The notes under the pieces: model-generated | Database searches by the model: none | Seen by the model: only the letters and a program-made list of their open reading frames with translations | Told to the model about the DNA's origin: nothing | Program-made: the position numbers and the translations under genes | Shown: piece after piece, positions 311 to 31,592 of the stretch | How the letters are laid out: every line of letters begins with the position of its first letter | How positions within the stretch are numbered: position 1 is the first letter of the stretch | NCBI GenBank assembly: GCA_949317995.1 | Contig: OX439047.1 | Span: 37,114,950 to 37,178,949 of the forward strand | Source: Acholoe squamosa | Taxonomy: Eukaryota; Annelida; Polychaeta; Phyllodocida; Polynoidae | Length of the DNA stretch: 64,000 nucleotides | Direction of reading: 5' to 3'

Positions 311-313
<3 letters not shown>

Positions 314-663
314 GGCGGAGACGGAGGGGCCGTTGGCGGAGCCGAAACCATCCTGGTGTGGGGGCGGCGAGGCCAGCGGTCCTGAAGTAACGCGGTTACG
401 TCGGCAATAGTGGTTGGCGGAGGAGATCCTCCAACGCTGGCCTGCCGTAAAGCAGGCCGGGGTCGGAGTTGTTACTCCGATCAGGCAGTTCTGAGTTGCA
501 GACAAAGAGGAGCAGAACTCTAAAAGGCTTACCTCCGGATTAATATATATACGATACAAGACTTAGATGGTGTGGCGAAGACTGCCAGGAAATAAAAGAC
601 ACTGAAGTCAAGCTGTCGGAGTTGTGTAATTCTTTATTAACCATAGAGTCGGAAAACGCTACA
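311..663 (+). repeat. 5' LTR of Ty3/gypsy element (TATA-less deletion variant)
   Basis: 353 bp, starting TGTGGCGGAG and ending ACGCTACA. Compared with the 3' LTR it lacks 26 bp after position 468, the stretch that carries TATAAATA in the other copies. A poly(A) signal AATAAA lies at 591-596. A U3 hairpin (429-468) is present but one stem position is altered (CTCCAAC instead of CTCCGAC). Confidence 0.93.
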
Positions 664-664
664 T

Positions 665-682
665 TGGTGACAGCGGTGTTTG
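665..682 (+). promoter_or_regulatory. Primer binding site (PBS)
   Basis: One base after the 5' LTR the sequence continues TGGTGACAGCGGTGTTTG. The leading TGG is the complement of a tRNA CCA end, as expected for minus-strand priming. I could not assign the tRNA. Confidence 0.6.
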
Positions 683-703: not shown

Positions 704-2059
704 ATGGCGGAGGCTTCAGAAACGATAAACTTACCTGTGGAGAAGAGGGATACGGAGGAGATTAAGCGGGAAAAAGGGGTTTTACTGGAAGTGGTGGACG
801 AGGAAGTGACGCTACGGCAGAGAGGGGTGGTGAGGCCGGAAGAGATGAATCCGGAGAGACAAGCAGAACCCGCCGATAGGGCATCCCGGGATGAGGTGCC
901 GGACACGGGATATGAGGAACCACGCGTTAAAGAAAGGGAGCCCTACCTGTGGCCATGGGAAAGGGAGGAGAAACCGGCGGCCTGGAGGCTGAGACACCCT
1001 AAAGGAAAAATGGGTGATGCAAATGCCTGGCTGGGGTTCGACCCGGGAAGGGACGATGGCGGGAAGGTGCTTCGGTGGCCGGAGGAGCAGGCGGAGATGA
1101 ATAACCCAAGGAAGGGGAGCAAGCGGGCACGGGCCGAGGTTCGCCCCGAAGCCAGGAGATGTGCGGAGGAGGCGGATAAGGACGAAGTAGGGGAAGGTGG
1201 AGATCTCCGGCAGGGTAGAGGAGTTATGGGTCGTCCGAAGGGCGGCTGGAGAGGAGGTGCTGATGGGGAGAAGGAGGCAAAGGGTAAGCCAGTGGTGAAA
1301 CCCGCTAAATATGATGGCACCACAGACCTATCTGACTACCTCAACCACTTCGACCTGTGCGTCAAGGTAAATGGATGGAAGCCGGAGGAGGCGGGTATGT
1401 TCCTAGGCCTGAGTCTGTCGGGGGCAGCCCGGAGATTGTTGACGGGAAGGAAACCAGCCACGCCGGAGGGGTATGAGGAGTTAAGAAGGGCACTCGTGGA
1501 AAGGTTTGAGCCTACTAATCAGGAAGAGATCTACAAAGCCTTCCTCCGCACTAGGGTCAGGCGAAAGGGAGAGGGACTGCAAGAGTTACAAGAAGAACTA
1601 AAAAAGTACACTAAGTTAGCATATCCGGAGGCGGACGCCCGGACGACAGACACCTTAGCTCTCGACAGATTCCTATTGTGCCTCGACAATCCACTCAGGC
1701 AGTGGGTGTATCAGTCAACACCGAAAGATTTACAATCCGCAGTAATGACGGCGGTGGGAGCGGAGGCGTACCTAAAAGTGGAGCAGGAGAATATCCACAA
1801 AGTGCGGGCGGCGGATGCGTCAGTAAATGAACACCTCAAGTCCAACAAGGAGGAAATGAGCAAAATGGCGGAGTTGATGGAGCGGTTAGTTCAAAGGTTG
1901 GATGATCCGGCGGTGTTGGGGAGGAAGAAAAAACCAAGCAATGGTGCTTGCTTCGGATGCGGACAGGAAGGCCATTTCAAGCGAGAATGCCCAAATATCA
2001 ATGCCAAGGAGGCATCCAAGCCAGTGAGCGAACAGGCTACTCCGGCGGCGGGAAACTAG
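704..2059 (+). CDS. gag: Gag polyprotein of Ty3/gypsy element
   Basis: 451-residue Gag, the structural protein of the virus-like particle, which binds and packages element RNA. The frame is open from a TTG at 680, but the first ATG is at 704, inside AAGATGGCGG with a strong Kozak context, so I take 704 as the start. The first ~190 residues are very charged and probably disordered. The middle (about residues 200-370, starting KYDGTTDLSDYLNHF) is a retrotransposon gag/capsid-type domain. The C-terminus has one CCHC zinc knuckle (CFGCGQEGHFKREC, about residues 416-429) for nucleic-acid binding. The ORF ends at TAG 2057-2059, immediately after the slippery heptamer GGGAAAC. It overlaps the pol frame, which is -1 relative to gag. 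No internal break is seen, so Gag is probably functional. Confidence 0.9.
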   Translation: MAEASETINLPVEKRDTEEIKREKGVLLEVVDEEVTLRQRGVVRPEEMNPERQAEPADRASRDEVPDTGYEEPRVKEREPYLWPWEREEKPAAWRLRHPKGKMGDANAWLGFDPGRDDGGKVLRWPEEQAEMNNPRKGSKRARAEVRPEARRCAEEADKDEVGEGGDLRQGRGVMGRPKGGWRGGADGEKEAKGKPVVKPAKYDGTTDLSDYLNHFDLCVKVNGWKPEEAGMFLGLSLSGAARRLLTGRKPATPEGYEELRRALVERFEPTNQEEIYKAFLRTRVRRKGEGLQELQEELKKYTKLAYPEADARTTDTLALDRFLLCLDNPLRQWVYQSTPKDLQSAVMTAVGAEAYLKVEQENIHKVRAADASVNEHLKSNKEEMSKMAELMERLVQRLDDPAVLGRKKKPSNGACFGCGQEGHFKRECPNINAKEASKPVSEQATPAAGN

Positions 2060-5000
2060 AATCGACCTATACTAAAGGCCAAGTACAGGTCGAGGGAAGT
2101 GGGCCTATCAATGTGATACAGGGCCGCCGAGAGAGGGGCGGAGGAGGATTGATAGTAGAGGGCCGGCTGGCAGGGGCCCCCATCCAATTGCTGGTGGACA
2201 CTGGTGCGTCGCTTAATCTGGTCTCCGAAGGATGGTGGAGCAGGTGGGGCGGACGGGAACGCCTGGGAGAAACGGCGGAGAAGATCTACTCCGTCGATGG
2301 GCGGCCTATGGACATAAAAGGGGAAGTGCACACAGAGCTGGAAATCAGGAGGCGTACTATCAATGTGCGTTTCGTAGTCAGCGACACCGGGACGGAGGGA
2401 ATCCTGGGGGCGGAGTTCCTCCGCACCAACAAACTAATGGTCGACGTGGCAAAAGGGCGCCTAGTGTGGACAGAGGAGGATTCTGTATGTCGAATCGTCA
2501 GCACCCGGGCGGCGGTGCTGGGATCCGGACAGGAGGTCATGCTAGAGGGAACTCTAGCCGGACCCTGGCAACAGGGGGACGACGGGGTGATTGAAGGGAT
2601 GGCCGGACACAAGGGTGAACCGAGCTTCCTGGTGGGGCGGGGGCTGGTATGCCCCGAGGGGAGGGTCACTTGGGTCAGGGTGCTCAATCCCGGTCCTGAG
2701 CCAGTGGTGATATATAAAGACATGACTCTAGGAGCCATTCAACGAGTGGAGTGCAGAGGCGGAGGCGAGACAACGGCCGGAGAGGGATGGTGCCGGATGG
2801 TGGAGAGAGGTGAGCCGGAGGAACTAAAGCGCTTGGTAGACGGGCTAGTGAGCGGGACGGAGGCTCACCGTAGAAAGGAGCTTGCACGGCTTAAAAGGAA
2901 ACACCTGGGGGCATTTCAGAGGCATAAGGGCGACAAAGGGCACACTCAATTGGCCAAGCATAGGATTGATACGGGGGTACATCCACCTATCAAACAACCG
3001 CCGAGGCGATTGGCACCCCATAGACGAGAGGCTGTAGAAGAGGAGGTGGAGAAGATGTTGGAAGCCGGAGTGATTGAGCCATCCACTAGCCCGTGGGCTT
3101 CTCCGGTGGTCCTAGTAAGAAAAAAAGATGGTACCACTCGCTTCTGTGTGGACTACCGGAGGCTCAACGCCGCCACCGTGAAGGATGCTTATCCCCTGCC
3201 TAGAGTGGAAGATTGTCTCGATACCATGGCGGGGGCCGCTTGGTTTTCGTCAGTGGATCTGGCCAGCGGCTACTGGCAGTTGGATATAGAGGAGGGGGAT
3301 AAAGAGAAGACAGCATTCACGACACACCGGGGGCTGTTCCAATTCCGGAGAATGCCCTTCGGTTTGTGCAATGCGCCAGGCACATTCGAGAGGGTGATGG
3401 AAGTGGCCATGAGGGGACTACAGTGGAAAACTTGTTTGGTCTATCTAGACGACATAGTCGTATTCTCCGCCACCTTCGAGGAACATATGGAGCGCCTGGG
3501 GGAGGTACTTCAAAGGCTGGAGGATGCTGGGCTTAAAATCAAGCCCTCCAAATGCCAGTTGGCTCGCCGCAGAGTGTTATTCCTGGGCCACCAAGTGAGT
3601 GAGGCGGGAGTAGGGACAGATCCGGAAAAGATAGAGGCGGTGCAGTCGTGGCCCACTCCGACCACGGTGACGGAGGTCCGGAGTTTTCTGGGGCTAGCCG
3701 GCTACTACAGGACCTTCATTCCCGAGTTCTCTACGAGGGCTAAACCACTGAGTGCGTTGGCCGAGAAAGGGAGGACGTTCCGGTGGTCGGAGGAATGCGA
3801 GGCATCATTCCAAGACCTAAAAAGGAGATTAACCGAGGCCCCTATCCTAGCTTTCCCCCAGGCGGAGGGACAGCTTACCTTAGACACCGACGCCAGTGAC
3901 ACAGGCCTCGGAGTGGTACTGTCCCAGGAACAGACGGGGGTAGAGAGGGTCCTAGCCTATGGCAGCCGCACTCTCAGCAGGCCGGAGCGTAACTATTGCG
4001 TTACAAGGAGGGAGCTGCTGGCTATAGTCTTTGGCCTCAGGAAATTCAAGCATTACCTAATAGGGAGGAGGGTGGTAGTCCGAACAGATCATGCCTCCCT
4101 GCGGTGGCTGTTGGAGTTCAAGGAGCCGGAGGGCCAGCTGGCTCGATGGCTGCAGATCATAAGTACTTACGACATAGTAGTGCAGCATAGGCCGGGGAAA
4201 TTACATGGGAATGCGGATGGGCTGTCCAGGAAGCCCTGCAAGCAATGTGGACGAGAGGGCGAGGAGGAGCTGCTGCATTGCCGGGTTTTCACAAGGTCTC
4301 AATGCCAGGAGATGGTTCGGGGGGCGCCTCTGGCGGCGGAGGACTCCACTCCGCCGGCAGGGAGAGGGTGGGGCACACTCCAAGCGGAGGACACCGTGCT
4401 GACTCGGGTCAGAGCATGGGTGAACGGGGAGGCGACCACCACAGAGGAGGAAAGACGGACCTGGGGCTATGAGCTGAGGGCCTGGCATGCCCAATTGGGG
4501 CGCACGAGTATAGAAAAAGGGATACTGGGCCGGTGGTGGGAAGGCGCGGCGGGGGAACGATGCTTCCAAATTGCTGTACCCGCCCGGAGCAGGAATGATG
4601 TGCTCAGGGAGGTCCACGGAGAACCCTTGGCGGGGCATCTGGGCCGAAACAAAACCATCCGGCGCCTCCAGACAGGTTACTACTGGCCTGACTTCAGGAG
4701 GGATGTGACCCTGTGGTGCGCCAGCTGTGAACCCTGTGTCTGGAGGAAGGCGGCTCCACCTCCGCACCGGGCACCAATGGGACATGTGGGTGCTGGACTA
4801 CCCCTACAGAGGATAGCTCTAGACGTGATGGGTCCATTGCCCTTGTCCTCCGCCGGGAACCAATATATTTTGGTGGCGGCGGACTACTTCACTAAATGGA
4901 CGGAAGCGTACGCTTTACCCAACCAGGAGGCACCCACGGTGGCCAGGGCTGTGGTGGAGGAGTTCATCTGTAGATTTGGAGCCCCGGCGGAGGTGCACAC

Positions 5001-6123
5001 AGATCAGGGCAAGAACTTCCAGTCGGGACTATTCAGGGAAATGGTGGCCTTACTGGAAGTCAGGCAGACCAGAACCTGTTCCTTTAGGCCCCAAAGCGAT
5101 GGGATGGTGGAGCGGGCCAACAGAACGATTGAAATGCTGCTGGCGACGGTGGTGGCGGAGGACCAACGGGACTGGGACCGGCGGCTGCCATTTGTAATGG
5201 CGGCGTATCGCTCCTCCGCACACGCCTCCACGGGTTTGTCCCCCAATCTTCTGATGTTGGGGCGGGAAACGGTCATTCCCCTGGATTTGGTTTACCCACT
5301 GGAGCCCAATGTAGGGGGAGGAGTCGGTTACGTGGCCGAATTACAAACCACCATGGCAAAAGCATACTCCATCGCTAGGGAGGCCCTCGGAAGGTCCCTC
5401 TGCAGGCAACAGAGGAACTATGATGCAAGAGCCTCGGCAGGCGAATTCCCTGTCGGGGGCAGGGTCTTCTACTACCACCCTCTCCGGAAGAGGGGCCTGA
5501 CACCTAAACTCCAGAGCTATTGGACAGGCCCATGGGAGATAGTGGGGCGCTTAGGGGAGGCGGTGTATAAAATTAAAAAGGGCAAAACTACCAGGGTAGT
5601 CCATTACGACGCCCTAAAACTGGCCCCGGCGCTGGCCACGGCGGAGGATGTTCCCATGGAGGATGAAACAAGGGAGGCCGAGCCCCTATCTTCTGACAAT
5701 TCAGACGAGGAGGAAGAAGGATCCGGAGGGGGCACCATCCGGCTGGTTCAGGTGACCCCGGAGACTGGAGCTGACCTGGAGGCGAAACTGCTGACCTGCA
5801 AAGAGAAAAAGAGACATCAAATAACTGAAACCAGTAAGGGAGGGGCAGCGGATAAAGGAAATCGTAAAGAAGGTCTGCGGAGGAGTGCACCGAAGCCTGC
5901 CGGAACCAGCGTAGCCCGGGCCGTCAGACTGGCGCCTCAACTGGATACTTACCTTGGGGCGGAGTGGCGGAGCCGCAAAAGCAGGATGAGTCAAGAAGGC
6001 CTCGACTGGTGCGATGTATGGCTGGAAAATGAAAGAAGGTTGAAGAAAGAAGCCGAAATGTCACATTGGAAGGGGGTAGAACCAGAGGAGGACCCTCCCT
6101 ACGAGGAATGGTCCCTCCCCTAG
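1948..6123 (+). CDS. pol: Pol polyprotein of Ty3/gypsy element (PR-RT-RH-IN)
   Basis: The pol frame is open across the gag end. It should be translated as Gag-Pol by -1 slippage at 2050-2056, so the product begins in effect at about 2057. Domains in order: aspartic protease with DTGAS (GAC codon at 2197); RT with FCVDYRRLN, a VDLASGYWQL motif and YLDD (near 3440); RNase H with TLDTDASD, a RRELLAIVFGL helix, VRTDHASLRW and HGNADGLSR; integrase with an HHCC zinc module (HLGRNK to CASCEPC, about 4635-4740), DDE residues near 4818 (LDVMGP), 4998 (HTDQG) and 5107 (VERANR); and a GPY/F-like module (YWTGPWEIVG, about 5520). No chromodomain is visible. The last ~170 residues are an acidic/basic tail without a known fold. 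The stop TAG at 6121-6123 directly abuts the next ATG in the same frame. Confidence 0.92.
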   Translation: MLRMRTGRPFQARMPKYQCQGGIQASERTGYSGGGKLESTYTKGQVQVEGSGPINVIQGRRERGGGGLIVEGRLAGAPIQLLVDTGASLNLVSEGWWSRWGGRERLGETAEKIYSVDGRPMDIKGEVHTELEIRRRTINVRFVVSDTGTEGILGAEFLRTNKLMVDVAKGRLVWTEEDSVCRIVSTRAAVLGSGQEVMLEGTLAGPWQQGDDGVIEGMAGHKGEPSFLVGRGLVCPEGRVTWVRVLNPGPEPVVIYKDMTLGAIQRVECRGGGETTAGEGWCRMVERGEPEELKRLVDGLVSGTEAHRRKELARLKRKHLGAFQRHKGDKGHTQLAKHRIDTGVHPPIKQPPRRLAPHRREAVEEEVEKMLEAGVIEPSTSPWASPVVLVRKKDGTTRFCVDYRRLNAATVKDAYPLPRVEDCLDTMAGAAWFSSVDLASGYWQLDIEEGDKEKTAFTTHRGLFQFRRMPFGLCNAPGTFERVMEVAMRGLQWKTCLVYLDDIVVFSATFEEHMERLGEVLQRLEDAGLKIKPSKCQLARRRVLFLGHQVSEAGVGTDPEKIEAVQSWPTPTTVTEVRSFLGLAGYYRTFIPEFSTRAKPLSALAEKGRTFRWSEECEASFQDLKRRLTEAPILAFPQAEGQLTLDTDASDTGLGVVLSQEQTGVERVLAYGSRTLSRPERNYCVTRRELLAIVFGLRKFKHYLIGRRVVVRTDHASLRWLLEFKEPEGQLARWLQIISTYDIVVQHRPGKLHGNADGLSRKPCKQCGREGEEELLHCRVFTRSQCQEMVRGAPLAAEDSTPPAGRGWGTLQAEDTVLTRVRAWVNGEATTTEEERRTWGYELRAWHAQLGRTSIEKGILGRWWEGAAGERCFQIAVPARSRNDVLREVHGEPLAGHLGRNKTIRRLQTGYYWPDFRRDVTLWCASCEPCVWRKAAPPPHRAPMGHVGAGLPLQRIALDVMGPLPLSSAGNQYILVAADYFTKWTEAYALPNQEAPTVARAVVEEFICRFGAPAEVHTDQGKNFQSGLFREMVALLEVRQTRTCSFRPQSDGMVERANRTIEMLLATVVAEDQRDWDRRLPFVMAAYRSSAHASTGLSPNLLMLGRETVIPLDLVYPLEPNVGGGVGYVAELQTTMAKAYSIAREALGRSLCRQQRNYDARASAGEFPVGGRVFYYHPLRKRGLTPKLQSYWTGPWEIVGRLGEAVYKIKKGKTTRVVHYDALKLAPALATAEDVPMEDETREAEPLSSDNSDEEEEGSGGGTIRLVQVTPETGADLEAKLLTCKEKKRHQITETSKGGAADKGNRKEGLRRSAPKPAGTSVARAVRLAPQLDTYLGAEWRSRKSRMSQEGLDWCDVWLENERRLKKEAEMSHWKGVEPEEDPPYEEWSLP
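2050..2106 (+). promoter_or_regulatory. Programmed -1 frameshift signal at the gag-pol junction
   Basis: GGGAAAC (2050-2056) lies in the correct X_XXY_YYZ phase directly before the gag stop TAG (2057-2059). After a 5-nt spacer, TCGACCT (2062-2068) can pair with AGGTCGA (2087-2093). The loop segment AGGCC (2076-2080) can pair with GGCCT (2102-2106), giving an H-type pseudoknot. GGGAAAC is an established retroviral slippery heptamer. Phase, spacing and structure all fit a classic -1 signal that sets the Gag:Gag-Pol ratio. The fold was found by eye, not by energy calculation. Confidence 0.8.
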
Positions 6124-7701
6124 ATGGGCGAGTCGGATGAAGAGGGGGTGAGTGATGAGAGTGAGTTGGCCCGCAGAAGGCGGAACCATGGCCAAAACGA
6201 GGAAATCAGGGCAGAAAGATTAAGGAGGGCGGCGGATCCAGGCCGGAGGAGAATCAGGGAGAAGCATAGGGAAAGATGGTTTATTTACGAGATGATCAAG
6301 GAAGCCATCTACAACAACCATGAAAACGAAGAGAGGGAAGCCAGGAGGGTGGGACGCTGCAGAACAGCCATGACGCAGGGGAGGTCGGAAGGCCAGGCTC
6401 CAAATTCCTCGACGGCGGGCGGTGAGGCCGGCCGGCCGGCGGCCGGAGCGCCGCCTAGAGGGGTAGGGCCGGAGAGGCGGGAGTCGCTAAGCAGCCCTCA
6501 TAACAAGTTCTCCCCAATAAAAGGCGGGGGAAGGGCCGTTAACGGTCAGTCTACAATGCAGGCCGGAGATGACACGCGGTTGGTGGTTCTAAGAGGGACA
6601 GGGCCCGAGGGTGAATCGAGTCGAGGCAAAGATGCTGGTGGAGGGTCAAAGAAAGTGTCTTCTACAGTGTCCAGCCAATCCCGGGAGGGCTCCACACGCT
6701 CAAGACACAGGGAGAGTCGGCGGAGGAGGAGAGAGAGAGAAAGATCCTCCAGCCACTCCTCCTCTAGCCGCTCCACTAGTGGCCACAGAAGGGACGGAGT
6801 GTCTGCCCGGACGGAGGCAGCCAGACATGGGAGGAGGGACTCGGAGAGCCGTAGTCGGAGTGGGAGCTATCGGAGGCGGAGGTCCTCGGCTGACCGCGGA
6901 TCACGTTCCCACGGTTCACAGCAGGCACGTGAGAGCGGAGGCGCCACTGGCGACCACAGTGTGCGGAGTAAGGCTATGATGCAATCGGGGGTTTCCCACG
7001 GCGTGGTGACGGAGGGTGGCCTGACCCAGGGGACGGTGATTGGAGGAGTGGGGAAAGGGGGCGTGACCACCGGGGGGAATATAAGGGAGCGCTATCCGCC
7101 TCACCCTTCAATTCCTGTTAGCCTATGGACAACGCCGCAACTAGTAATGCCTGTCTTCAAAAACAGAGACCAGAAGCCGGTCCCCACGGAGTGGGTGGAC
7201 GGGGTGGAGCTGCCGAAGTATCGGTGCGAGATCTGCCGGAAAAAGGGGGACTCCAAGCAGTGGTACTTCATGAGATCCGATGGGATGAACCGCAATCTCC
7301 GCACTCATGACGAGATGCAAGAGGGCTACCAGTGCCCTAAGTGTGAGTACATGGTAGCCAAGATCCGGGTGGATGATCTCCGGCGACACATCACGCGTAT
7401 TCACCCCGAGCTGAAGGACTGGCAGCCGCCGGAGGAGTGCAGGATGCTACCGGTGGGCCGGGCAACGGAGGCGGGAGGATCCTCGGCGGACAGTAGCCTC
7501 GTGGCCGCCCCAACTAGCCCGGAGGAAGCTGTCAAGTTCACCACCACAAAGGGGAAGAGGGGGAGTGCGGTGGCCAAGAAAAAGAAACCAGGGAAGGCCA
7601 CCTCCAAGGCCGTGGCCCCCCCGCCGCAGCAGGGCAACTCGGCGGGTGGAGGGGGTGCGGGGGACAGCCCCAGTGGATCTACCTTCAGCGGCATGGCATA
7701 G
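6124..7701 (+). CDS. Post-pol ORF: SR-rich protein with zinc-finger motif
   Basis: 525-residue ORF that starts with ATG directly after the pol stop (TAG ATG) in the pol frame. It may be made by termination-reinitiation, by stop readthrough or from a spliced RNA. Residues about 180-275 are rich in Arg-Ser dipeptides, like SR splicing-factor domains. Residues about 368-428 carry paired cysteines (CEIC) and then CPKC followed by H-x4-H, a C2H2-type finger (C-x2-C-x14-H-x4-H). The C-terminus is Lys/Pro/Gly-rich. There is no signal peptide or membrane segment, so it is not an envelope protein. The composition suggests a nuclear, RNA- or DNA-binding accessory protein, which is inference. It ends at TAG 7699-7701, after which the same frame stays open for another 795 nt. 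I do not recognise the family. Confidence 0.7.
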   Translation: MGESDEEGVSDESELARRRRNHGQNEEIRAERLRRAADPGRRRIREKHRERWFIYEMIKEAIYNNHENEEREARRVGRCRTAMTQGRSEGQAPNSSTAGGEAGRPAAGAPPRGVGPERRESLSSPHNKFSPIKGGGRAVNGQSTMQAGDDTRLVVLRGTGPEGESSRGKDAGGGSKKVSSTVSSQSREGSTRSRHRESRRRRRERERSSSHSSSSRSTSGHRRDGVSARTEAARHGRRDSESRSRSGSYRRRRSSADRGSRSHGSQQARESGGATGDHSVRSKAMMQSGVSHGVVTEGGLTQGTVIGGVGKGGVTTGGNIRERYPPHPSIPVSLWTTPQLVMPVFKNRDQKPVPTEWVDGVELPKYRCEICRKKGDSKQWYFMRSDGMNRNLRTHDEMQEGYQCPKCEYMVAKIRVDDLRRHITRIHPELKDWQPPEECRMLPVGRATEAGGSSADSSLVAAPTSPEEAVKFTTTKGKRGSAVAKKKKPGKATSKAVAPPPQQGNSAGGGGAGDSPSGSTFSGMA

Positions 7702-8499
7702 CCGGGAATAACGCTGGAGGAGGAGACGGAGGCTGCTGTCGCCTCCAAATACTTGGAGCAATTGCTGGGATTCCGCGTGGAGGGGACCAGCACACCCCAG
7801 AGCTGTCTCTCCGTCAGGTCCACCCGGAGTACGTCAGGGAAGGGGGTCAAGAGGGTCTTCGAGCCGGAGGGGGAGGAGGAATCGGCGGAAAAGAGGAAGA
7901 GACAATCCCCACGGGGTAAGGAGCGGCAGGCGGAGGAGGAAGCGGGACCCTCCACCCCGCCACTGACCACAGGGATACCCGACCTGACACCTCTATTGAG
8001 CGGGGGGGAGGTGGAAATAGACGAAGAAATGGCGGGGAAACTGAAGTTCGTCATAGGATTACTGGTAGAGAGATATGGACAGGCGGGGGAGACCCCCACC
8101 AAGACTCTGTTACGAATGCAACGGGAGGTGCCTCTAGGGGAGGTCAATGTGAGGGCCCTGGAGGCGGAGTACGAGGAAACCAAGAAGGACACTCCGACCT
8201 CCCGAACCTCCATCAAGTCGGCTGCCTACGAGGACATCTCCGCCACGAGTGGGGAGGACGGAGAGAGCTTGGGACTAGGGGGAAATGGGCTGGACTCTAG
8301 CCCCGAGAAGCAGCCTCCTTATGAACTAATCAACAAGCCCAAACCCACCCTCTCCGGTGCCAGTCCCGAGACGTTGCCCTCCTATGAGGATATGAGTAAA
8401 CCTTCCCCTGGCAAACCGAAACCCATCCTGAAGACAGTTACAATCGTGACGCCTGAGTTGCCGGAGAAGGGTGAGGTGGAGGGGGTGGGGGGGGGGTGA
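7702..8499 (+). CDS. Post-pol ORF, middle segment (no own ATG at start)
   Basis: Same frame as pol and the SR-rich ORF, separated from the latter only by TAG 7699-7701. It opens with CCG GGA ATA and has no ATG near its start (its first possible alternative start is a TTG at 7753). This suggests it is really a continuation of the preceding protein, reached by readthrough or cut off by a nonsense mutation. It encodes about 265 charged, Pro/Glu/Lys-rich residues with a short hydrophobic helix (KLKFVIGLLVERYG). The ORF runs into a run of ten G (8487-8496) and stops at TGA 8497-8499. No known domain is recognised. Confidence 0.5.
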   Translation, partial: PGITLEEETEAAVASKYLEQLLGFRVEGTSTPQSCLSVRSTRSTSGKGVKRVFEPEGEEESAEKRKRQSPRGKERQAEEEAGPSTPPLTTGIPDLTPLLSGGEVEIDEEMAGKLKFVIGLLVERYGQAGETPTKTLLRMQREVPLGEVNVRALEAEYEETKKDTPTSRTSIKSAAYEDISATSGEDGESLGLGGNGLDSSPEKQPPYELINKPKPTLSGASPETLPSYEDMSKPSPGKPKPILKTVTIVTPELPEKGEVEGVGGG

Positions 8500-9700
8500 T
8501 GAGGCGGAGGAGGTGGAAGGGGAGGATGAAACCAGCGAGGAGTCAGAGGAGGTGGCCATTCCGGCCTACGTACAATCCTGCCCTAAACTGAAAGCCCAGT
8601 TCCTGGCCGTACTCAGCGATGCTAAGGAGGAGGAGCGAAAGAAGAAAAGAGAAATTAAACGGAAAGAGAGAGAGGAGGCAGAGAGGAAGGCCAGAGAGGC
8701 TGAGGAGCGCCGGAGGGCGGAGGAGGAACAGCGGAGAAAGGAGGAGGAGGAGAGGAAGGCCAAAGAGGCGGAGAAAGAAAGACTGAGGAAAGAGAGGGAA
8801 ACTAAAAGTAAAAGCCCTAAAGGAAAAGGGGCGGGAAAGTCTACGAGGAAGTTGAGCCTGGAGGGAGTGTTAAAAGAGGCGGAGGAGGAGGCCATACAAA
8901 ACCTATCCATGGATGAGGGCACCGCCCAATTAATGAGCAAATTTCAATCGTGTTCCGTAGGGACACCGGTGAAGGAGAAAGGACAGGCGGAGAAGGTACC
9001 GAAGACCCCCCCTGTAAAGCCGGGGACCTTATTTGCTCTACCCAAGTTGGATAAGTACCCCCGAACTGTGACTGTGGGGTTGGACGGGCTAGTCATTCGC
9101 TCGCCCAAGGGGGAATTCTTGCTGCAAGTAGAAGTGGGGGAGGAGAGTGGACGGGCGGAGACCATGGTGATGGTGCCGGAGGGGGTCGAGACGGTGGTCG
9201 GAGGGTCTGGGGATCCGGAGCCCCTACCCAACACTGAGACAGACCGAGTGATTGTAGTAACCGGATTACCTATAGGAGATATGGGAGAAGGGGGAATCGC
9301 CAGCACTGAGGGGTTAGCGGGGGTAGAGGAGGTGCACCGCCTGCCGCTAGATCAACGAGGAGATAAAGCGGGTGACAATAGGGACGAGGAGGCGGAGGAG
9401 GATGGGGCTATGCCATGGCATTCGGATTTTACCGGGCCGGAGGCCCTCAAGGAACACTCTAGACGACTGGGGCAGCCTCAGACCCTAGGACCTGAGATGA
9501 GGGTTATACCCGGGGGACTGCAATCTTCCTCCATTCACACTCTCCCCAATGGAGATATTGAACTGGTCCATGTTACCCGGACCCGTTATGGCCGTGATAA
9601 GAGGGGATGCTGCAGCCGCTGCAGACAGCGGTGGCCGAAGCCGTTGGCGGCGCGGACGACCAAGGCTGGAACCAACGAGGGCGGCGACAAGACATCCTGA
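8471..9700 (+). CDS. Post-pol ORF, distal segment with ER/K-rich helix
   Basis: Open frame of 409 codons, +1 relative to the preceding segment. It overlaps at the G10 tract and begins only with GTG. One G fewer in the tract would fuse the two segments, so this is probably the C-terminal part of one ~1190-residue accessory protein. About 75 residues (about 8620-8845) are an unbroken alternation of Glu, Lys and Arg, typical of a single alpha-helix or coiled coil. The rest is acidic and low-complexity. The C-terminus (Cys-Cys-x2-Cys, basic) ends at TGA 9698-9700. The function is unknown. Alternatively a frameshift is used on purpose at the G tract. Confidence 0.5.
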   Translation: MRWRGWGGGDEAEEVEGEDETSEESEEVAIPAYVQSCPKLKAQFLAVLSDAKEEERKKKREIKRKEREEAERKAREAEERRRAEEEQRRKEEEERKAKEAEKERLRKERETKSKSPKGKGAGKSTRKLSLEGVLKEAEEEAIQNLSMDEGTAQLMSKFQSCSVGTPVKEKGQAEKVPKTPPVKPGTLFALPKLDKYPRTVTVGLDGLVIRSPKGEFLLQVEVGEESGRAETMVMVPEGVETVVGGSGDPEPLPNTETDRVIVVTGLPIGDMGEGGIASTEGLAGVEEVHRLPLDQRGDKAGDNRDEEAEEDGAMPWHSDFTGPEALKEHSRRLGQPQTLGPEMRVIPGGLQSSSIHTLPNGDIELVHVTRTRYGRDKRGCCSRCRQRWPKPLAARTTKAGTNEGGDKTS

Positions 9701-10041
9701 GGCGATCCGGAGGGCGACGGAGAAGGGGCGGTGGGGAACGCTCCACCGAAGGGAGGCGGAGGATGTCTGCCGGATCCAGACGAAATGACGTCGTATTATT
9801 GTATAAAAGTTGTTGTTATGGTTATACTCCGCATAGGGGACGGCGGATTCGGTTCACTTAGTAGTTAATGCCGCCTACAGAGGAGGTTTAAGTAGGATTT
9901 ACTTGTGTGTATATGTGTAGCTATTTACTTAAACGCCCAGGGGCCATGGCGTGGCAGGATTATTCAAAATTGGAAACCCATCTGCAGGAGGGTAATATCA
10001 CACTCTTTCTCCCGGTAAGGCTATAGATTAGTTGGGGAGAG
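9701..10041 (+). other. 3' untranslated tail and polypurine tract of the Ty3/gypsy element
   Basis: Non-coding 340 bp between the last ORF and the 3' LTR. It ends in the purine-rich AGTTGGGGAGAG (10030-10041) immediately before the LTR start, the expected polypurine tract for plus-strand priming. A truncated duplicate lies at 13370-13790. Confidence 0.75.
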
Positions 10042-10159
10042 TGTGGCGGAGACGGAGGGGCCGTTGGCGGAGCCGAAACCATCCTGGTGTGGGGGCGGCG
10101 AGGCCAGCGGTCCTGAAGTAACGCGGTTACGTCGGCAATAGTGGTTGGCGGAGGAGATC

Positions 10160-10199
10160 CTCCGACGCTGGCCTGCCGTAAAGCAGGCCGGGGTCGGAG
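10160..10199 (+). other. Two-tier hairpin in LTR U3
   Basis: CTCCGAC (10160-10166) pairs with GTCGGAG (10193-10199), and inside it GGCCTGC pairs with GCAGGCC around a CGTAAA loop. It lies just upstream of the TATA box. The 5' LTR copy has one mismatch. A regulatory role is possible but not shown. Confidence 0.6.
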
Positions 10200-10211
10200 T
10201 ATCTGCCTATG

Positions 10212-10219
10212 TATAAATA
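10212..10219 (+). promoter_or_regulatory. LTR TATA box (TATAAATA)
   Basis: Perfect TATA box in the 3' LTR, also present at 13961-13968 in the duplicated LTR but deleted from the 5' LTR. It marks U3 and predicts transcription start about 30 bp downstream. Confidence 0.7.
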
Positions 10220-10417
10220 AGGGAGTTGTTACTCCGATCAGGCAGTTCCGAGTTGCAGACAGAGAGGAGCAGAACTCTAAAAGGCTTACCTCCGGATTAA
10301 TATATATACGATACAAGACTTAGATGGTGTGGCGAAGACTGCCAGGAAATAAAAGACACTGAAGTCAAGCTGTCGGAGTTGTGTAATTCTTTATTAACCA
10401 TAGAGTCGGAAAACGCT

Positions 10418-10420
<3 letters not shown>

Positions 10421-10489
<69 letters not shown>

Positions 10490-10494
10490 CAGTT
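10421..10494. repeat. (AT)n and (TG)n microsatellites
   Basis: AT run directly after the 3' LTR, then a TG run up to the left end of the foldback-like element. Duplicated at 14170-14255. Confidence 0.85.
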
Positions 10495-12741
10495 GGTGTA
10501 ACCGGCAAATTGGGGACATTAATGCGAACACACACCTACAAACTGGGGACATCTTGCGAACCGGGGACGGCTCACTTCGCATGACCTTGAGAAAAGGGGG
10601 ACAATGGGTTTGGGTATCACAAAGGACCTTGAAAAATGGTTATGAACATGATTTCTAATGTGTCAACAAAATGTCCCCAATTTGGCCCGGAGCAACTTGT
10701 GCTGTGTGTAAAAAGTAAGAGCTATTTTTTTGTGATTTTTGCCTGTGTGTAAAAGTCCCCAATTTGTTTTGCACACTGAGAGATCTGTGTGTCCCCAGTT
10801 CACCCACTGATCTGGGTGTATTGCCTAATTGGTTTTATTGCCATTTTTGACCTCTTAGGGATTAATCCAGTGTATTTGCATAAAAATTGTCACAAATTTG
10901 AGCCAGACATTGAATCTGTGTGCCTGCAAACTGAGAAATTTCCTTAATAGACCCTGTGTGTCTACAAAGTGAGGACATGACTTCACAGTGTGTGCTTGCA
11001 AACTGAGGCCTACGGGACTTTCTCTTGGGTATGGTCAAATGCAAAGAGTGTAAACAAACTGAGGTCTTGATATTAGGCATTATATCTTTTTCTACCCCTA
11101 TACAAAAGCATTCAGTCTATTTACAAAGAATAGATACATTTAAACAAGAACAAGACATCATTTTCTAGCTGTGTGCTCAAATGAATTGAGGACTCCACAC
11201 AGTGTTTAGGCAAACTGAGGACATGACCACACATTGTGTGTATGCAAATAGAGGACTTGGCCTTAGATATACTCCACACAGTGTGTGTATGCAAATAGAG
11301 GACTTGGTCTTAGATACACTCCACACAGTGTGTGTAGGCAAACTGAGGACATGACCACACAGTGTGTGTAGGCAAATAGAGGACTTGGTTTTAGATACGC
11401 TCCACACAGTGTGTGTAGGCAAACTGAGGACATGACCACACATTGTGTGTATGCAAATAGAGGACTTGGCCTTAGATATACTCCACACAGTGTGTGTATG
11501 CAAATAGAGGACTTGGTCTTAGATACACTCCACACAGTGTGTGTAGGCAAACTGAGGACATTAGTATACAGAATGTGTATGCAAATAGAGGACTTGGCCT
11601 TAGATACACCCGACACATTGACTCAAAAAGAAGGATTCCAGAGTCAGGTAAGTGAACCTCCAGGCTTACTTTAGCAAAGTTGAATTTAACTTATTTTGGC
11701 AGGCAATACATAGTATTTGAGGGAACTGATGCTCTCTCCACACATATTTTCTTTGGATTAAGTCTAAATGTTTATGAAACTTTGAAGGTTTTCTAGCAGG
11801 TCAACCTAACTGAGTGTATTGGGATTCTGGAGTATTGTGTATCTTTTTACCATAAGGTTTCAACTCTACTGTCACTTAACCAGTTCCTCCTATATCCACT
11901 CACTCCCAAGGGGAACCTTATCACAAGGACTCCCTCTAGAATGAAAATCTAATTTTGGATATGTCATCCTAAGTCATGCTAAGAGTATGTATACACTAGT
12001 TTTCTATTTGCAGATGCATACTGTATTAGTTTGTACACACACACTTTATGGACCTTACCTTTAACCAGGTCCTGTATTTGCCCACATGGTGTACTGATGT
12101 CCTCTATTTGCATACACATACTGTGTGGCCATGTCCTGAGTTTGCATACATATACTGTGTGTCCTCAGTTTGCATACACACGCTGTCTGGTTAAGTCATC
12201 GGTTTGCATACAGATACTGTGTGTCCTCTATTTGCATACACACTCTGTGTGGCTTAGTCCTCAGTTTGCAAACACACTGTGTGGAGTATATCTAAGATCA
12301 AGTCCTCTATTCGCATACACATACTGTGTGATTATGTCCTCAGTTTGCATACACATTGTTTGACTCACCAATTTCTACATAGGTAGGTAATAACGTCTTG
12401 CTTATCTAAAAAAAAACAGTCTATTCTTCATAAATAGACTGGATACTCTTGTGATTAGGATCAGAAAAGTAGATATAAGATAGCTATTCGAATTGTACAA
12501 ATGTCCTCACTTTGCTTATGAAACACTGGCAATGTCCTCAGTTAAGGCACATCATACTGTTCTACTTGGGAGCACCAGAGACCAATTTGATATTTTGCAC
12601 TAGGACTGTTTACTGTTTTATGGGAGCTAAAATAGACTTGTGCTCTAAATTGAACCAGAATTAAGTGAAAGCTGGGTGAATGTAGGAATGTCCCCGCTTT
12701 GGAGGAGTGTGCAACATTGTCCCCAATTTGCTGGTTACACC
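10495..12741. mobile_element. Foldback-like non-autonomous element A, copy 1
   Basis: The ends are inverted copies: GGTGTAACC-G-GCAAATTGGGG on the left (10495) and its reverse complement with one change on the right (ending 12741). The left arm holds repeats of CAAACTGAGGACAT and CAAATAGAGGACTT separated by CACACAGTGTGTGTA, and the right arm holds the same motifs reversed (12030-12360). Long inverted repeats built of short tandem repeats are typical of Foldback-type elements. It lies between (TG)n tracts, so it probably inserted into a TG microsatellite. No transposase ORF. ORFs read through the repeats are artefacts of the repeats. Confidence 0.7.
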
Positions 12742-13369
12742 TGTATGTGTGTGTGTGTGTATGTGTGTGTGTGCTTAAAAAAGGAATTGTCAATATCCAT
12801 CAAACCAATAACTAATCAAATGCTAGATCGACACATTGACACGAGCTGTAGCCTGTTGCATCAATAGAAATGTGGACAGTAAAAAACATTGTCTTGCACC
12901 ATATTGTTTATTTGTTTCTTTAATTTCGTTCTCCTTTCTCTCTCTTTTTGGTTTCATATCAAAATGGACTTGGGTGGAGTTTCCGGTCAACTATTGAATA
13001 AGAAAGAAACACATAACTTTTGCATCCACTTTTGCGACAGATGGACCATCCATCTCCCTTCGTCGTTTTTTTTTCTCCATAGAAATCAATTGTAAATGAT
13101 ACGGATGAAACTGACGGAGGGTCTATCTGTCGGCATTGGATGCACCCCTTTGGACACGGCAGGTCAGGTCAAAGACATGCAGGTCAGGCCTAAGACAATG
13201 CAGGTCAGGTCTCAGACTAAGCAGGTGATCAGGTCTAAGATGAGGCAGGGCCCCCCCCCCCTCAACTCCCTATGGAAAACTGCTTGCAAAGCTGGGATTC
13301 GAACCCACATGTGCCACCACAGACTGAAAAGAGGTACCAAAGGTGGGATAATGGGAAATAAGTGCATCT
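12742..13369. other. GT microsatellite and unique flank in duplication unit 1
   Basis: (GT)n at 12745-12774, then sequence without a recognisable gene. At about 13292-13307 the minus strand reads GGGTTCGAATCCCAGC, a perfect tRNA T-arm/B-box, but no A-box is found upstream, so it is at most a tRNA-derived remnant. Small ORFs here have no support. Confidence 0.5.
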
Positions 13370-13790
13370 GCGGACAGCGGTGGCCGAAGCCGTTGGCGGC
13401 GCGGACGACCAAGGCTGGAACCAACGAGGGCGGCGACAAGACATCCTGAGGCGATCCGGAGGGCGACGGAGAAGGGGCGGTGGGGAACGCTCCACCGAAG
13501 GGAGGCGGAGGATGTCTGCCGGATCCAGACGAAATGACGTCGTATTATTGTATAAAAGTTGTTGTTATGGTTATACTCCGCATAGGGGACGGCGGATTCG
13601 GTTCACTTAGTAGTTAATGCCGCCTACAGAGGAGGTTTAAGTAGGATTTACTTGTGTGTATATGTGTAGCTATTTACTTAAACGCCCAGGGGCCATGGCG
13701 TGGCAGGATTATTCAAAATTGGAAACCCATCTGCAGGAGGGTAATATCACACTCTTTCTCCCGGTAAGGCTATAGATTAGTTGGGGAGAG

Positions 13791-14166
13791 TGTGGCGGAG
13801 ACGGAGGGGCCGTTGGCGGAGCCGAAACCATCCTGGTGTGGGGGCGGCGAGGCCAGCGGTCCTGAAGTAACGCGGTTACGTCGGCAATAGTGGTTGGCGG
13901 AGGAGATCCTCCGACGCTGGCCTGCCGTAAAGCAGGCCGGGGTCGGAGTATCTGCCTATGTATAAATAAGGGAGTTGTTACTCCGATCAGGCAGTTCCGA
14001 GTTGCAGACAGAGAGGAGCAGAACTCTAAAAGGCTTACCTCCGGATTAATATATATACGATACAAGACTTAGATGGTGTGGCGAAGACTGCCAGGAAATA
14101 AAAGACACTGAAGTCAAGCTGTCGGAGTTGTGTAATTCTTTATTAACCATAGAGTCGGAAAACGCT

Positions 14167-14169
<3 letters not shown>
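13791..14169 (+). repeat. Third LTR copy (made by tandem duplication)
   Basis: Appears identical by eye to the 3' LTR 10042-10420, with the same upstream retrotransposon tail. It is not an independent insertion but part of duplication unit 2. It has TATAAATA at 13961-13968. Confidence 0.93.
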
Positions 14170-14250
<81 letters not shown>

Positions 14251-14255
14251 CAGTT

Positions 14256-16502
14256 GGTGTAACCGGCAAATTGGGGACATTAATGCGAACACACACCTAC
14301 AAACTGGGGACATCTTGCGAACCGGGGACGGCTAACTTCGCATGACCTTGAGAAAAGGGGGGCAATGGGTTTGGGTATCACAAAGGACCTTGAAAAATGG
14401 TTATGAACATGATTTCTAATGTGTCAACAAAATGTCCCCAATTTGGCCCGGAGCAACTTGTGCTGTGTGTAAAAAGTAAGAGCTATTTTTTTGTGATTTT
14501 TGCCTGTGTGTAAAAGTCCCCAATTTGTTTTGCACACTGAGAGATCTGTGTGTCCCCAGTTCACCCACTGATCTGGGTGTATTGCCTAATTGGTTTTATT
14601 GCCATTTTTGACCTCTTAGGGATTAATCCAGTGTATTTGCATAAAAATTGTCACAAATTTGAGCCAGACATTGAATCTGTGTGCCTGCAAACTGAGAAAT
14701 TTCCTTAATAGACCCTGTGTGTCTACAAAGTGAGGACATGACTTCACAGTGTGTGCTTGCAAACTGAGGCCTACGGGACTTTCTCTTGGGTATGGTCAAA
14801 TGCAAAGAGTGTAAACAAACTGAGGTCTTGATATTAGGCATTATATCTTTTTCTACCCCTATACAAAAGCATTCAGTCTATTTACAAAGAATAGATACAT
14901 TTAAACAAGAACAAGACATCATTTTCTAGCTGTGTGCTCAAATGAATTGAGGACTCCACACAGTGTTTAGGCAAACTGAGGACATGACCACACATTGTGT
15001 GTATGCAAATAGAGGACTTGGCCTTAGATATACTCCACACAGTGTGTGTATGCAAATAGAGGACTTGGTCTTAGATACACTCCACACAGTGTGTGTAGGC
15101 AAACTGAGGACATGACCACACAGTGTGTGTAGGCAAATAGAGGACTTGGTTTTAGATACGCTCCACACAGTGTGTGTAGGCAAACTGAGGACATGACCAC
15201 ACATTGTGTGTATGCAAATAGAGGACTTGGCCTTAGATATACTCCACACAGTGTGTGTATGCAAATAGAGGACTTGGTCTTAGATACACTCCACACAGTG
15301 TGTGTAGGCAAACTGAGGACATTAGTATACAGAATGTGTATGCAAATAGAGGACTTGGCCTTAGATACACCCGACACATTGACTCAAAAAGAAGGATTCC
15401 AGAGTCAGGTAAGTGAACCTCCAGGCTTACTTTAGCAAAGTTGAATTTAACTTATTTTGGCAGGCAATACATAGTATTTGAGGGAACTGATGCTCTCTCC
15501 ACACATATTTTCTTTGGATTAAGTCTAAATGTTTATGAAACTTTGAAGGTTTTCTAGCAGGTCAACCTAACTGAGTGTATTGGGATTCTGGAGTATTGTG
15601 TATCTTTTTACCATAAGGTTTCAACTCTACTGTCACTTAACCAGTTCCTCCTATATCCACTCACTCCCAAGGGGAACCTTATCACAAGGACTCCCTCTAG
15701 AATGAAAATCTAATTTTGGATATGTCATCCTAAGTCATGCTAAGAGTATGTATACACTAGTTTTCTATTTGCAGATGCATACTGTATTAGTTTGTACACA
15801 CACACTTTATGGACCTTACCTTTAACCAGGTCCTGTATTTGCCCACATGGTGTACTGATGTCCTCTATTTGCATACACATACTGTGTGGCCATGTCCTGA
15901 GTTTGCATACATATACTGTGTGTCCTCAGTTTGCATACACACGCTGTCTGGTTAAGTCATCGGTTTGCATACAGATACTGTGTGTCCTCTATTTGCATAC
16001 ACACTCTGTGTGGCTTAGTCCTCAGTTTGCAAACACACTGTGTGGAGTATATCTAAGATCAAGTCCTCTATTCGCATACACATACTGTGTGATTATGTCC
16101 TCAGTTTGCATACACATTGTTTGACTCACCAATTTCTACATAGGTAGGTAATAACGTCTTGCTTATCTAAAAAAAAACAGTCTATTCTTCATAAATAGAC
16201 TGGATACTCTTGTGATTAGGATCAGAAAAGTAGATATAAGATAGCTATTCGAATTGTACAAATGTCCTCACTTTGCTTATGAAACACTGGCCATGTCCTC
16301 AGTTAAGGCACATCATACTGTTCTACTTGGGAGCACCAGAGACCAATTTGATATTTTGCACTAGGACTGTTTACTGTTTTATGGGAGCTAAAATAGACTT
16401 GTGCTCTAAATTGAACCCGAATTAAGTGAAAGCTGGGTGAATGTAGGAATGTCCCCGCTTTGGAGGAGTGTGCAACATTGTCCCCAATTTGCTGGTTACA
16501 CC
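14256..16502. mobile_element. Foldback-like element A, copy 2
   Basis: Near-identical partner of 10495-12741, of the same length (2247 bp), carried in duplication unit 2. Confidence 0.7.
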
Positions 16503-30297: not shown

Positions 30298-30345
30298 CAC
30301 ATCTTCAGATTCTAAAATAGGACCCAGCCTAAGGGCGCCACCCTA
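30297..30345 (-). promoter_or_regulatory. In-frame UAG junction between gag and RT
   Basis: The gag stop reads GAT TAG GGT, and the 15 codons from there to the RT ATG are all sense codons in the same frame. The older copy has GAC TAG GAA with the same uninterrupted frame (32834-32885). Conservation of a single UAG with open sequence after it argues for readthrough. Confidence 0.55.
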
Positions 30346-31341: not shown

Positions 31342-31386
31342 ATTGCAGGGTATTATACCGTAGAATTCGAAAAAACAAAGAATAAA

Positions 31387-31592
31387 GTTAAATTTCCCGG
31401 CACCACCCAGCGTGGTGTGTGCCGACCTGAGAAAACTCGCCAACTGACGGTTAATTTGGATCCCGCAGTTTATATAGGCGCTGGATGTTTACGGTGACGT
31501 CACACATACCAATGCGCGCTCCTGGAGGAAAAGTAGGTCCAGCCACTGCACATATTAATTATATATATATACACGGGTGTATATAGTCCCAT
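31387..31592 (-). repeat. A1 terminal repeat (younger element)
   Basis: 5' terminus of the younger element. The outermost 32 bp (31561-31592) contain the near-palindrome ATATACACSSGTGTATAT. It abuts the remainder of the older element's A1 at 31593. Confidence 0.85.

What the first reader, a model, noticed from the sequence alone, without database searches (positions are those of the whole stretch)
6124..9700. Ty3/gypsy element with a 3.6-kb post-pol module encoding an SR/zinc-finger/ER-K-helix protein
Seen: after pol, where env sits in errantivirus-like elements, there are ~1190 codons almost continuously open. They comprise an Arg/Ser-rich region, a C2H2-type finger near residues 368-428, an acidic middle and a ~75-residue Glu/Lys/Arg helix. 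There is no signal peptide or membrane segment, so it is not an envelope. Known: most Ty3/gypsy elements have only gag-pol, or gag-pol-env. Inference: this is an accessory nuclear or RNA-binding protein that may act in splicing, nuclear entry or chromatin targeting. It is the best candidate here for an undescribed retroelement module.
Basis: partly seen in the sequence, partly recalled or inferred. Interest (0 to 1): 0.75.

Follow-up and report, generated by a model that had tools for sequence, protein, structure and literature searches.

The report
Microsatellite-targeting retrotransposon with giant Pol tail
What looked like an extra gene behind the enzyme genes of a retrotransposon is really a very long, conserved tail on its integrase-bearing polyprotein, in a family that inserts mostly into AT repeats, so the tail may be the part that helps choose where the element lands.

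Summary
The open frames are real, but they are not a separate post-pol gene. In 34 of 34 other copies fetched from the same genome, the codons at the apparent pol stop (6121-6123) and at the inner stop (7699-7701) are sense codons. At 43 of 82 scored places the module's first part lies in one open frame of 2,544 codons. The module is part of a ~1,350-codon C-terminal extension of Pol beyond integrase. The window's copy is broken.

It is under purifying selection: dN/dS 0.15 in the zinc-finger part, 0.20 and 0.33 in the later parts, 0.25 in pol; the Arg/Ser part is not clearly constrained. Fused finger-bearing extensions occur in relatives from other sources.

The family inserts into (AT)n microsatellites: 33 of 36 paired elements have ATATATAT directly after the 3' LTR, and 17 of 20 elements read at the 5' side follow an AT tract of at least 22 bp. 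About 24% would be expected if any ATAT were used.

Best explanation: the extension is a nuclear/chromatin tether that helps integrase find AT repeats. Fusion, constraint and targets are shown; the causal link is inferred. No module-less control family could be examined.

The parts
311..663 (+). 5' LTR (353 bp, TG...CA), inserted inside an (AT)n tract; carries a 26-bp deletion relative to the 3' LTR
   Evidence: self-comparison and alignment; 3 substitutions in 353 columns against the 3' LTR, counted by eye
664..677 (+). primer-binding-site position directly after the LTR (TTGGTGAC...)
   Evidence: sequence; LTR end plus this motif occurs 211 times in the genome; identification as primer site is by position
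704..2059 (+). gag (ATG 704, zinc knuckle)
   Evidence: PF00098 E=3.7e-5
2050..2056 (+). G GGA AAC, in phase, directly before the gag stop: likely -1 frameshift site to pol
   Evidence: motif type recalled, frameshift inferred
2155..2418 (+). aspartic protease
   Evidence: PF13650 E=6.1e-8
3115..4170 (+). reverse transcriptase and RNase H
   Evidence: PF00078 E=7.5e-35, PF17917 E=1.9e-32
4576..5619 (+). integrase: H2C2 zinc domain, DDE core, GPY/F-like end
   Evidence: PF17921, PF00665, PF22938; end placed at HYDALK
5620..9697 (+). C-terminal extension of Pol (~1,350 codons); in this copy interrupted by stops at 6121-6123 and 7699-7701 that 34 of 34 other copies lack, and by a frame change at a G10 tract (8487-8496)
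6499..7080 (+). Arg/Ser-rich part
   Evidence: R 16%, S 20%, net +22; dN/dS 0.73 over 6502-7080
7225..7404 (+). pair of C2H2 zinc fingers; seven of eight ligand positions are kept in 34 of 34 other copies and one in 33 of 34; one ligand is lost in the window's copy
   Evidence: dN/dS 0.15 over 7081-7473
7702..8496 (+). mildly acidic middle part
   Evidence: net -13 of 265 residues; dN/dS 0.20 over 7702-8460
8600..8848 (+). Glu/Lys/Arg-rich stretch, probably a long single helix
   Evidence: dN/dS 0.15; helix inferred from composition, not modelled
9029..9697 (+). C-terminal part of the extension
   Evidence: third piece 29% identical to P0002 over 375 residues; dN/dS 0.39 over 9029-9619
10030..10041 (+). 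purine-rich tract directly before the 3' LTR
   Evidence: sequence
10042..10420 (+). 3' LTR (379 bp), followed by (AT)n

Best explanation
The module is the C-terminal part of a Gag-Pol-X polyprotein of a young Ty3/gypsy family. Ribosomes shift by -1 at the end of gag, translate pol and run on into a ~1,350-residue extension beyond integrase, so the extension is made at the level of Pol and carried into the particle. There its basic Arg/Ser and Lys parts and two C2H2 fingers act beside integrase: they take the pre-integration complex into the nucleus, hold it on chromatin and help put new copies into (AT)n microsatellites, where they do little damage. The Glu/Lys/Arg helix would be a spacer. 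SHOWN: one frame with pol, purifying selection, fingers in relatives, insertion into AT repeats. INFERRED: frameshift, packaging, nuclear entry, and the extension's part in target choice.
For: Sense codons at both stop positions in 34 of 34 other copies; 43 of 82 scored places in an open frame of 2,544 codons, the length expected for pol plus module; 6 of 34 copies open through 3.1 kb of pol and the whole module. In-phase G GGA AAC directly before the gag stop. dN/dS 0.15 finger part, 0.20 acidic part, 0.33 third piece, 0.25 pol; wrong phases 0.79-3.15. Variants shared by at least 3 copies include no stop; finger part 7 synonymous, 2 nonsynonymous. P0002, P0007, P0008 and P0010 carry 993-1,152 residues beyond integrase with C2H2 motifs. 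LTR ends genome-wide: 456 exact (reversed-pattern control 12), 211 followed by the primer site, 200 by ATATATAT. First 100 ends: 33 of 36 paired elements followed by ATATATAT; the other 3 start ATAC, ATATAA, ATATATAA. 17 of 20 5' tracts at least 22 bp, the rest 10, 7 and 1. Random-ATAT expectation: 24.5% followed by ATAT, 23% in tracts of 20 bp or more. Parallel: the Ty3 integrase chromodomain, C-terminal to its CTD, contacts TFIIIB and target DNA (PMC8632968, passages).
Against: Drosophila gypsy-group elements have 4-bp ATAT/TATA target motifs (PMC3276498, passages), so the integrase core may supply part of the preference. No module-less family of this genome was examined: 13 requests did not complete, the last. 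RGRP/KGRP (AT-hook-like) motifs found in 3 of 8 relatives examined are absent from the window's pieces. The Arg/Ser part shows little constraint. Insertions in repeats may survive better than others. 18 of 34 copies enter the third piece in a closed phase; slippage, assembly error and real loss cannot be told apart.
Confidence: 0.5

Rival explanations
1. The AT-repeat preference comes from the integrase core alone, helped by better survival of insertions in repeats; the Pol extension does another job in the particle, such as binding the genomic RNA, helping reverse transcription, or nuclear import.
For: ATAT/TATA 4-bp motifs in Drosophila gypsy-group elements. Basic, Arg/Ser-rich composition suits RNA binding. 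One element here has a 4-bp duplication ATAC outside a long tract (L043/L073).
Against: A bare ATAT requirement predicts about 24% of sites in AT repeats, against 33 of 36 and 17 of 20 seen. The finger part is among the most constrained parts of the module (0.15, as is the Glu/Lys/Arg stretch).
Confidence: 0.33
2. It is a nuclear regulator of unspliced RNA, working like CERV of Cer1 or retroviral Rev.
For: CERV is a nuclear protein with a possible C4 zinc finger, needed for export of Cer1 genomic RNA (PMC10309623, sections read). Arg/Ser composition. ATG kept at 6124 in 32 of 34 copies.
Against: CERV comes from a spliced mRNA; here the protein is in one frame with Pol, and the acceptor-like site at 6123 ranks only 77th of 962 AGs with a rough recalled matrix. 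Two of 34 copies lack the ATG.
Confidence: 0.1
3. It is a separate third ORF that begins after the end of pol.
For: In the window's copy a stop is followed directly by ATG.
Against: 34 of 34 other copies have no stop there, frames long enough for pol plus module are open at 43 of 82 places, and relatives are fused too.
Confidence: 0.02
4. It is an envelope or cell-to-cell transfer protein.
For: Its position downstream of integrase.
Against: No hydrophobic segment in the three pieces, no Pfam envelope match, in one frame with Pol.
Confidence: 0.02

Closest known systems
Gypsy_Ds1 of the ostracod Darwinula stevensoni (PMC7998251, passages)
   Same: A gypsy Pol with an atypical extension beyond the GPY/F end of integrase; [quoted passage not shown]
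   Different: 250 residues with remote similarity to viral spike coiled coils and no reported zinc finger (the term zinc finger does not occur in the text); no sequence comparison was made here
Chromoviruses and Ty3: chromodomain at the C-terminus of integrase
   Same: Ty3/gypsy; an extra domain placed C-terminally on integrase and connected with the choice of integration site (PMC8632968 passages; PMC3605345 search listing only)
   Different: No chromodomain among Pfam matches at E<=1 in pol or any piece; here two C2H2 fingers in an extension about twenty times longer; the target is a DNA repeat
Cer1 CERV protein (PMC10309623, abstract and three sections)
   Same: Large non-envelope extra protein of an LTR retrotransposon, nuclear, with a possible zinc finger
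   Different: CERV is made from a five-exon spliced mRNA sharing gag exons; this one is part of Pol. No sequence comparison was made
Bdelloid rotifer ORF3s (PMC5408684, abstract and section 3.3)
   Same: Non-envelope extra coding region after pol in LTR elements
   Different: Those are ORF3 enzymes (GDSL esterase/lipase, DEDDy exonuclease); this is a finger-bearing extension fused to Pol
Drosophila gypsy-group target motifs (PMC3276498, passages)
   Same: 4-bp duplication and an ATAT-type core
   Different: Here the preference extends to long (AT)n tracts
MuTAnT elements of Medicago (PMC4486113, abstract)
   Same: Insertion into TA microsatellites
   Different: Mutator-like DNA transposon, not an LTR element
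Ginger1 transposases (PMC2836005, passages)
   Same: gypsy-type integrase followed by extra C-terminal domains
   Different: DNA transposons; the domains are OTU or Ulp1 proteases and PHD fingers

Membership tests
Ty3/gypsy (Metaviridae) | PR-RT-RNase H-IN order | tested here: met
   Pfam order in the 1906-6120 frame
Ty3/gypsy (Metaviridae) | GPY/F integrase end | tested here: inconclusive
   PF22938 25.8 bits, cut-off 27; YWTGPW at 5518
Ty3/gypsy (Metaviridae) | LTRs with TG...CA and a short target duplication | tested here: met
   LTRs 311-663 and 10042-10420; 4-bp duplication ATAC readable in one other element (L043/L073); hidden by the repeat in the window
Errantivirus-like (gag-pol-env) | env with membrane segment | tested here: not met
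   maximum 19-residue hydropathy 1.13; no Pfam match
Chromovirus | chromodomain after integrase | tested here: not met
   No chromodomain among Pfam matches at E<=1
CERV-like regulator | separate spliced mRNA | tested here: inconclusive
   No transcript data; fused frame; acceptor-like site rank 77 of 962
CERV-like regulator | needed for export of genomic RNA | not testable with these tools
   needs an experiment
Microsatellite-targeted elements | most copies flanked by the same repeat | tested here: met
   33 of 36 3' ends; 17 of 20 5' ends with tract of at least 22 bp

The most novel reading that the evidence does not exclude
A lineage of Ty3/gypsy elements has built a sequence-reading targeting device into Pol: a ~1,350-residue C-terminal extension of integrase whose two C2H2 fingers, with disordered basic parts and a rigid helix, steer integration into AT microsatellites. 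It would be a targeting module unrelated to chromodomains, and the finger-bearing Pol extensions in a second pol lineage would be parallel or older versions that may read other targets.
Probability: 0.33. Interest if true: 0.82.

Novelty: new variant of a known kind. Interest (0 to 1): 0.62.

Why it matters
How integrases choose their sites is an open question with few natural examples of a reading domain carried on the integrase itself. Here one family combines a huge, constrained, finger-bearing Pol tail with a strong choice of AT repeats, in many young copies. That makes the link directly testable: binding of the isolated fingers, and comparison of targets across relatives with and without the tail. 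It is also a caution for annotation: the apparent extra gene was created by stop codons private to one copy, and only other copies revealed the fusion.

Tried and rejected
Rejected: a separate spliced ORF3. The TAG|ATG at 6121-6126 looked like a splice acceptor, but it ranks 77th of 962, and other copies have no stop there. Rejected: 3' LTR beginning near 9619; that break belongs to a tandem duplication, and the LTR begins at 10042. Rejected as evidence: homology of the C-terminal ends between the close clade and the second group (hhalign probability 0.07) and between P0007/P0008 and P0002 (E=0.45).

Led nowhere: searches with the 525-residue piece, whose length filter shuts out polyproteins of 2,000 residues; viral contigs with four queries; single-sequence fold of the finger region, mean pLDDT 38.3, not used. 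The finger model of P0007/P0008/P0010 found P0002 (1.1e-5), P0015 (1.4e-4) and, from the second group, P0099 (2.3e-5), but not the window's own piece at E<=1. Finger profiles of the two groups align globally at 70.8% probability, and locally at 93.9% but with finger 1 laid on finger 2, so this is generic C2H2 likeness.

Literature: no listed title or abstract start names a finger-bearing Pol extension or an AT-repeat-targeted LTR element. Only open-licence PMC papers are held. On checking, one listed paper (PMC7998251) does describe a 250-residue Pol extension of another kind (passages), so Pol extensions as such are in print. Two other listed papers, looked at for passages, held nothing relevant.

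Not done: the control with a module-less family of the same genome.
Full report
WHAT WAS CHECKED. The finding says that a Ty3/gypsy element carries, after pol, a 3.6-kb open region (6124-9700) coding for an Arg/Ser, zinc-finger and Glu/Lys/Arg-helix protein that is not an envelope. The open frames are there: 525, 265 and 416 codons. The longest exceeds each of 1,000 dinucleotide shuffles (median 141, maximum 286 codons), and for each piece 0 of 500 shuffles were fully open. Among plus-strand frames, a codon score trained on gag and pol prefers the pol frame up to about 8,500 and the shifted frame to about 9,420. It is uninformative at 6424-7023 and 9424-9700, and a minus-strand frame ties or leads in two 300-base windows, 7324-7623 and 7624-7923.

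THE ELEMENT. The LTRs are 311-663 and 10042-10420 (TG...CA). They differ by three substitutions in 353 columns plus a 26-bp deletion in the 5' copy (substitutions counted by eye). The primer site follows at 664. Gag starts at 704 and ends with an in-phase G GGA AAC directly before its stop at 2057-2059, a likely -1 frameshift site (motif type recalled). Pol holds protease, reverse transcriptase, RNase H and integrase and lies in the -1 frame. A 3.75-kb stretch holding the 3' end of the element, its LTR and flank is duplicated in tandem (9619-13369 and 13368-17131, 99.4%).

NOT A SEPARATE GENE. A DNA search with the module found 45 stretches, the window's own included (40 of 574 first-look candidates were scored). 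I fetched 34 of the other 44, the nearly full ones, and aligned each to the window. At the apparent pol stop 34 of 34 have a sense codon, and at the inner stop 34 of 34 have a sense codon. A protein search scored 82 of 6,272 first-look candidates, so 82 is a lower bound; 43 of the 82 lie in an open frame of exactly 2,544 codons, the length expected for pol plus module (counted by hand). Pol and module are therefore one polyprotein, and the extension starts where integrase ends, about 5620. The window's copy is a broken member: two stops and the loss of one zinc ligand that 34 of 34 others do not share, and a G10 tract at which it changes frame. That tract varies in length between copies, and a 28-bp deletion covers it in 10 of 34. 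Other copies have damage of their own: the first piece is free of stops in 28 of 34 and of frame-changing indels in 30 of 34; the second in 31 and 34; the third in 30 and 17. Sixteen of 34 enter the last piece in the open phase. Ten of 34 run open through the whole module, and 6 of these also through the 3.1 kb of pol examined.

SELECTION. Over 33 sequences (the window and 32 copies; two copies with rearranged pol left out), pairwise dN/dS is 0.25 in pol, 0.47 in the first piece (0.73 in its Arg/Ser part, interval 0.43-1.34; 0.15 in its finger part), 0.20 in the acidic part and 0.33 in the last piece (0.15 in the Glu/Lys/Arg stretch, 0.39 at 9029-9619). Wrong-phase controls gave 0.79 to 3.15. 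Intervals come from resampling codons, not lineages, so they are too narrow. As a check, variants shared by at least three copies contain no stop in any part: pol 73 synonymous to 39 nonsynonymous, fingers 7 to 2, acidic part 26 to 12, last piece 36 to 35. Single-copy variants contain stops, and their ratios are higher in each part. This is what is expected if the module was under constraint while the family spread and decays after insertion.

RELATIVES. The pol part found 3,713 proteins among the 7,976 candidates scored; 120 were listed. Of 119 whose integrase end could be placed, 16 have a C2H2-type motif in the part beyond it; P0015, not placed, has one too (read). Shuffled extensions have the motif in 13 of 1,660 trials. 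Of 28 extensions of at least 150 residues 12 lack it; several of these are repeated or chimeric entries. In a tree of 103 sequences the window, P0002 to P0008 and P0010 form a clade of nine (support 1.0). Four relatives in it (P0002, P0007, P0008, P0010) carry 1,152, 993, 1,149 and 1,023 residues beyond integrase. The other four (P0003 to P0006) carry only 252, 247, 11 and 109, which may be truncation or absence. The next neighbours, P0042 and P0043, carry 12 and 53. The window's pieces match P0002 (39% over 64 residues, 29% over 153, 29% over 375) and P0015 (26% over 288) with E from 3e-6 to 9e-18 in a set of 120 proteins, without low-complexity masking; pol is 65% (P0002) and 71% (P0015, over 726 residues) identical. 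A second set (P0021, P0025, P0027, P0048, P0063, P0071, P0075, P0086, P0088, P0099, P0106, P0118) lies elsewhere in the tree with extensions of 152-416 residues and, where aligned, similar finger pairs. C2H2 fingers are generic and the C-terminal ends do not match, so common descent of the two sets is not shown.

TARGET SITES. The window's element sits in (AT)n on both sides. In the eight loci, the LTR end could be read in six (L001, which is the window's own, L002, L004, L005, L007, L008) and all six are followed by AT repeats; in the other two no LTR end was found. Genome-wide there are 456 exact LTR ends (reversed-pattern control 12), 211 followed by the primer site and 200 followed by ATATATAT, the last counted with a pattern one base shorter at its start; about 45 are neither, of which about 12 are expected by chance. 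Among the first 100 listed ends, 46 are followed by ATATATAT and 36 are 5' LTR ends with a partner 8-11 kb downstream; of these 36 paired elements 33 have ATATATAT after the 3' LTR. I read all 18 remaining ends: 3 of paired elements (ATAC, ATATAA, ATATATAA), 9 primer sites, 3 beginning with ATAT (L046, L050, L055) and 3 unrelated (L048, L056, L059), about the number expected by chance. For the first 20 of the 36 paired elements I read the 5' side: the perfect alternating tract before the LTR is at least 22 bp in 17, and 10, 7 and 1 bp in the others; the last lies after TATATATAC and gives a 4-bp duplication ATAC. In 46.8 kb of the window beyond the element, 163 of 665 ATAT tetramers (24.5%) are followed by ATAT and 23% lie in tracts of 20 bp or more. 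That background is small and local. If sites were random ATAT, 46 of 52 (the three chance-like ends left out) would have a binomial probability of 3e-22; with those three counted it is 46 of 55.

HOW IT MOST LIKELY WORKS. Being fused behind integrase and made with Pol, the extension is best placed to act in the particle and the pre-integration complex. Its basic parts suit nuclear import and nucleic-acid contact, the constrained fingers suit contact with DNA or chromatin, and the long helix suits a spacer. Together with the AT-repeat preference this suggests a tether that helps choose the site, as the C-terminal chromodomain does in Ty3 (PMC8632968, passages). Shown are the fusion, the constraint, the fingers and the insertion pattern; inferred are the frameshift, the packaging and the causal link. 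The strongest rival is that the integrase core supplies the preference, since Drosophila gypsy elements have ATAT/TATA motifs (PMC3276498, passages). The control that would separate them, a module-less family of the same genome, was asked for 13 times and not answered (last).

COMPARISON WITH WHAT IS KNOWN. It belongs to Ty3/gypsy by domain order. It is not errantivirus-like (no membrane segment) and not a chromovirus (no chromodomain at E<=1). [quoted passage not shown] CERV of Cer1 is the nearest accessory nuclear protein that I saw, but it comes from a spliced mRNA (PMC10309623, abstract and three sections). Bdelloid ORF3s are enzymes (PMC5408684, abstract and section 3.3). TA-microsatellite targeting is known for MuTAnT DNA transposons (PMC4486113, abstract). 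In my searches of open-licence PMC papers no listed title or abstract start names a finger-bearing Pol extension or an AT-repeat-targeted LTR element; subscription papers and repeat databases were not searched. I call it a new variant of a known kind.

Noticed in passing
window 9619-13369 and 13368-17131: Tandem duplication, 99.4% identical, of the element's 3' end, its 3' LTR and about 3 kb of flank; real or an assembly artefact.
   Followed up: partly
window 311-663 vs 10042-10420: The 5' LTR lacks 26 bp present in the 3' LTR, between short direct repeats; the missing stretch holds a TATA-box-like sequence.
   Followed up: no
own genome: 43 of 82 scored places share an open frame of exactly the same length, nearly all with the same score: a very recent burst of one subfamily. 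Ten of 34 aligned copies share a 28-bp deletion at the G tract.
   Followed up: partly
window 27534-31488 (-) and 31803-35648 (+): Two inverted, 87% similar elements; the first has reverse transcriptase and tyrosine-recombinase matches (PF00078, PF00589), so DIRS-type (label recalled).
   Followed up: partly
window 57927-58802 (+): Host-like ORF with PF13578 Methyltransf_24 (E=4.5e-9), 292 codons.
   Followed up: no
P0021, P0025, P0027, P0048, P0063, P0071, P0075, P0086, P0088, P0099, P0106, P0118: A second group of Pol proteins with shorter finger-bearing extensions (152-416 residues); in those read, the extension follows a KPVWAKDYV-like Pol end. Possibly an independent gain.
   Followed up: partly
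window 37777-39050: Long array of diverged tandem repeats that yields overlapping mechanical ORFs on both strands.
   Followed up: no
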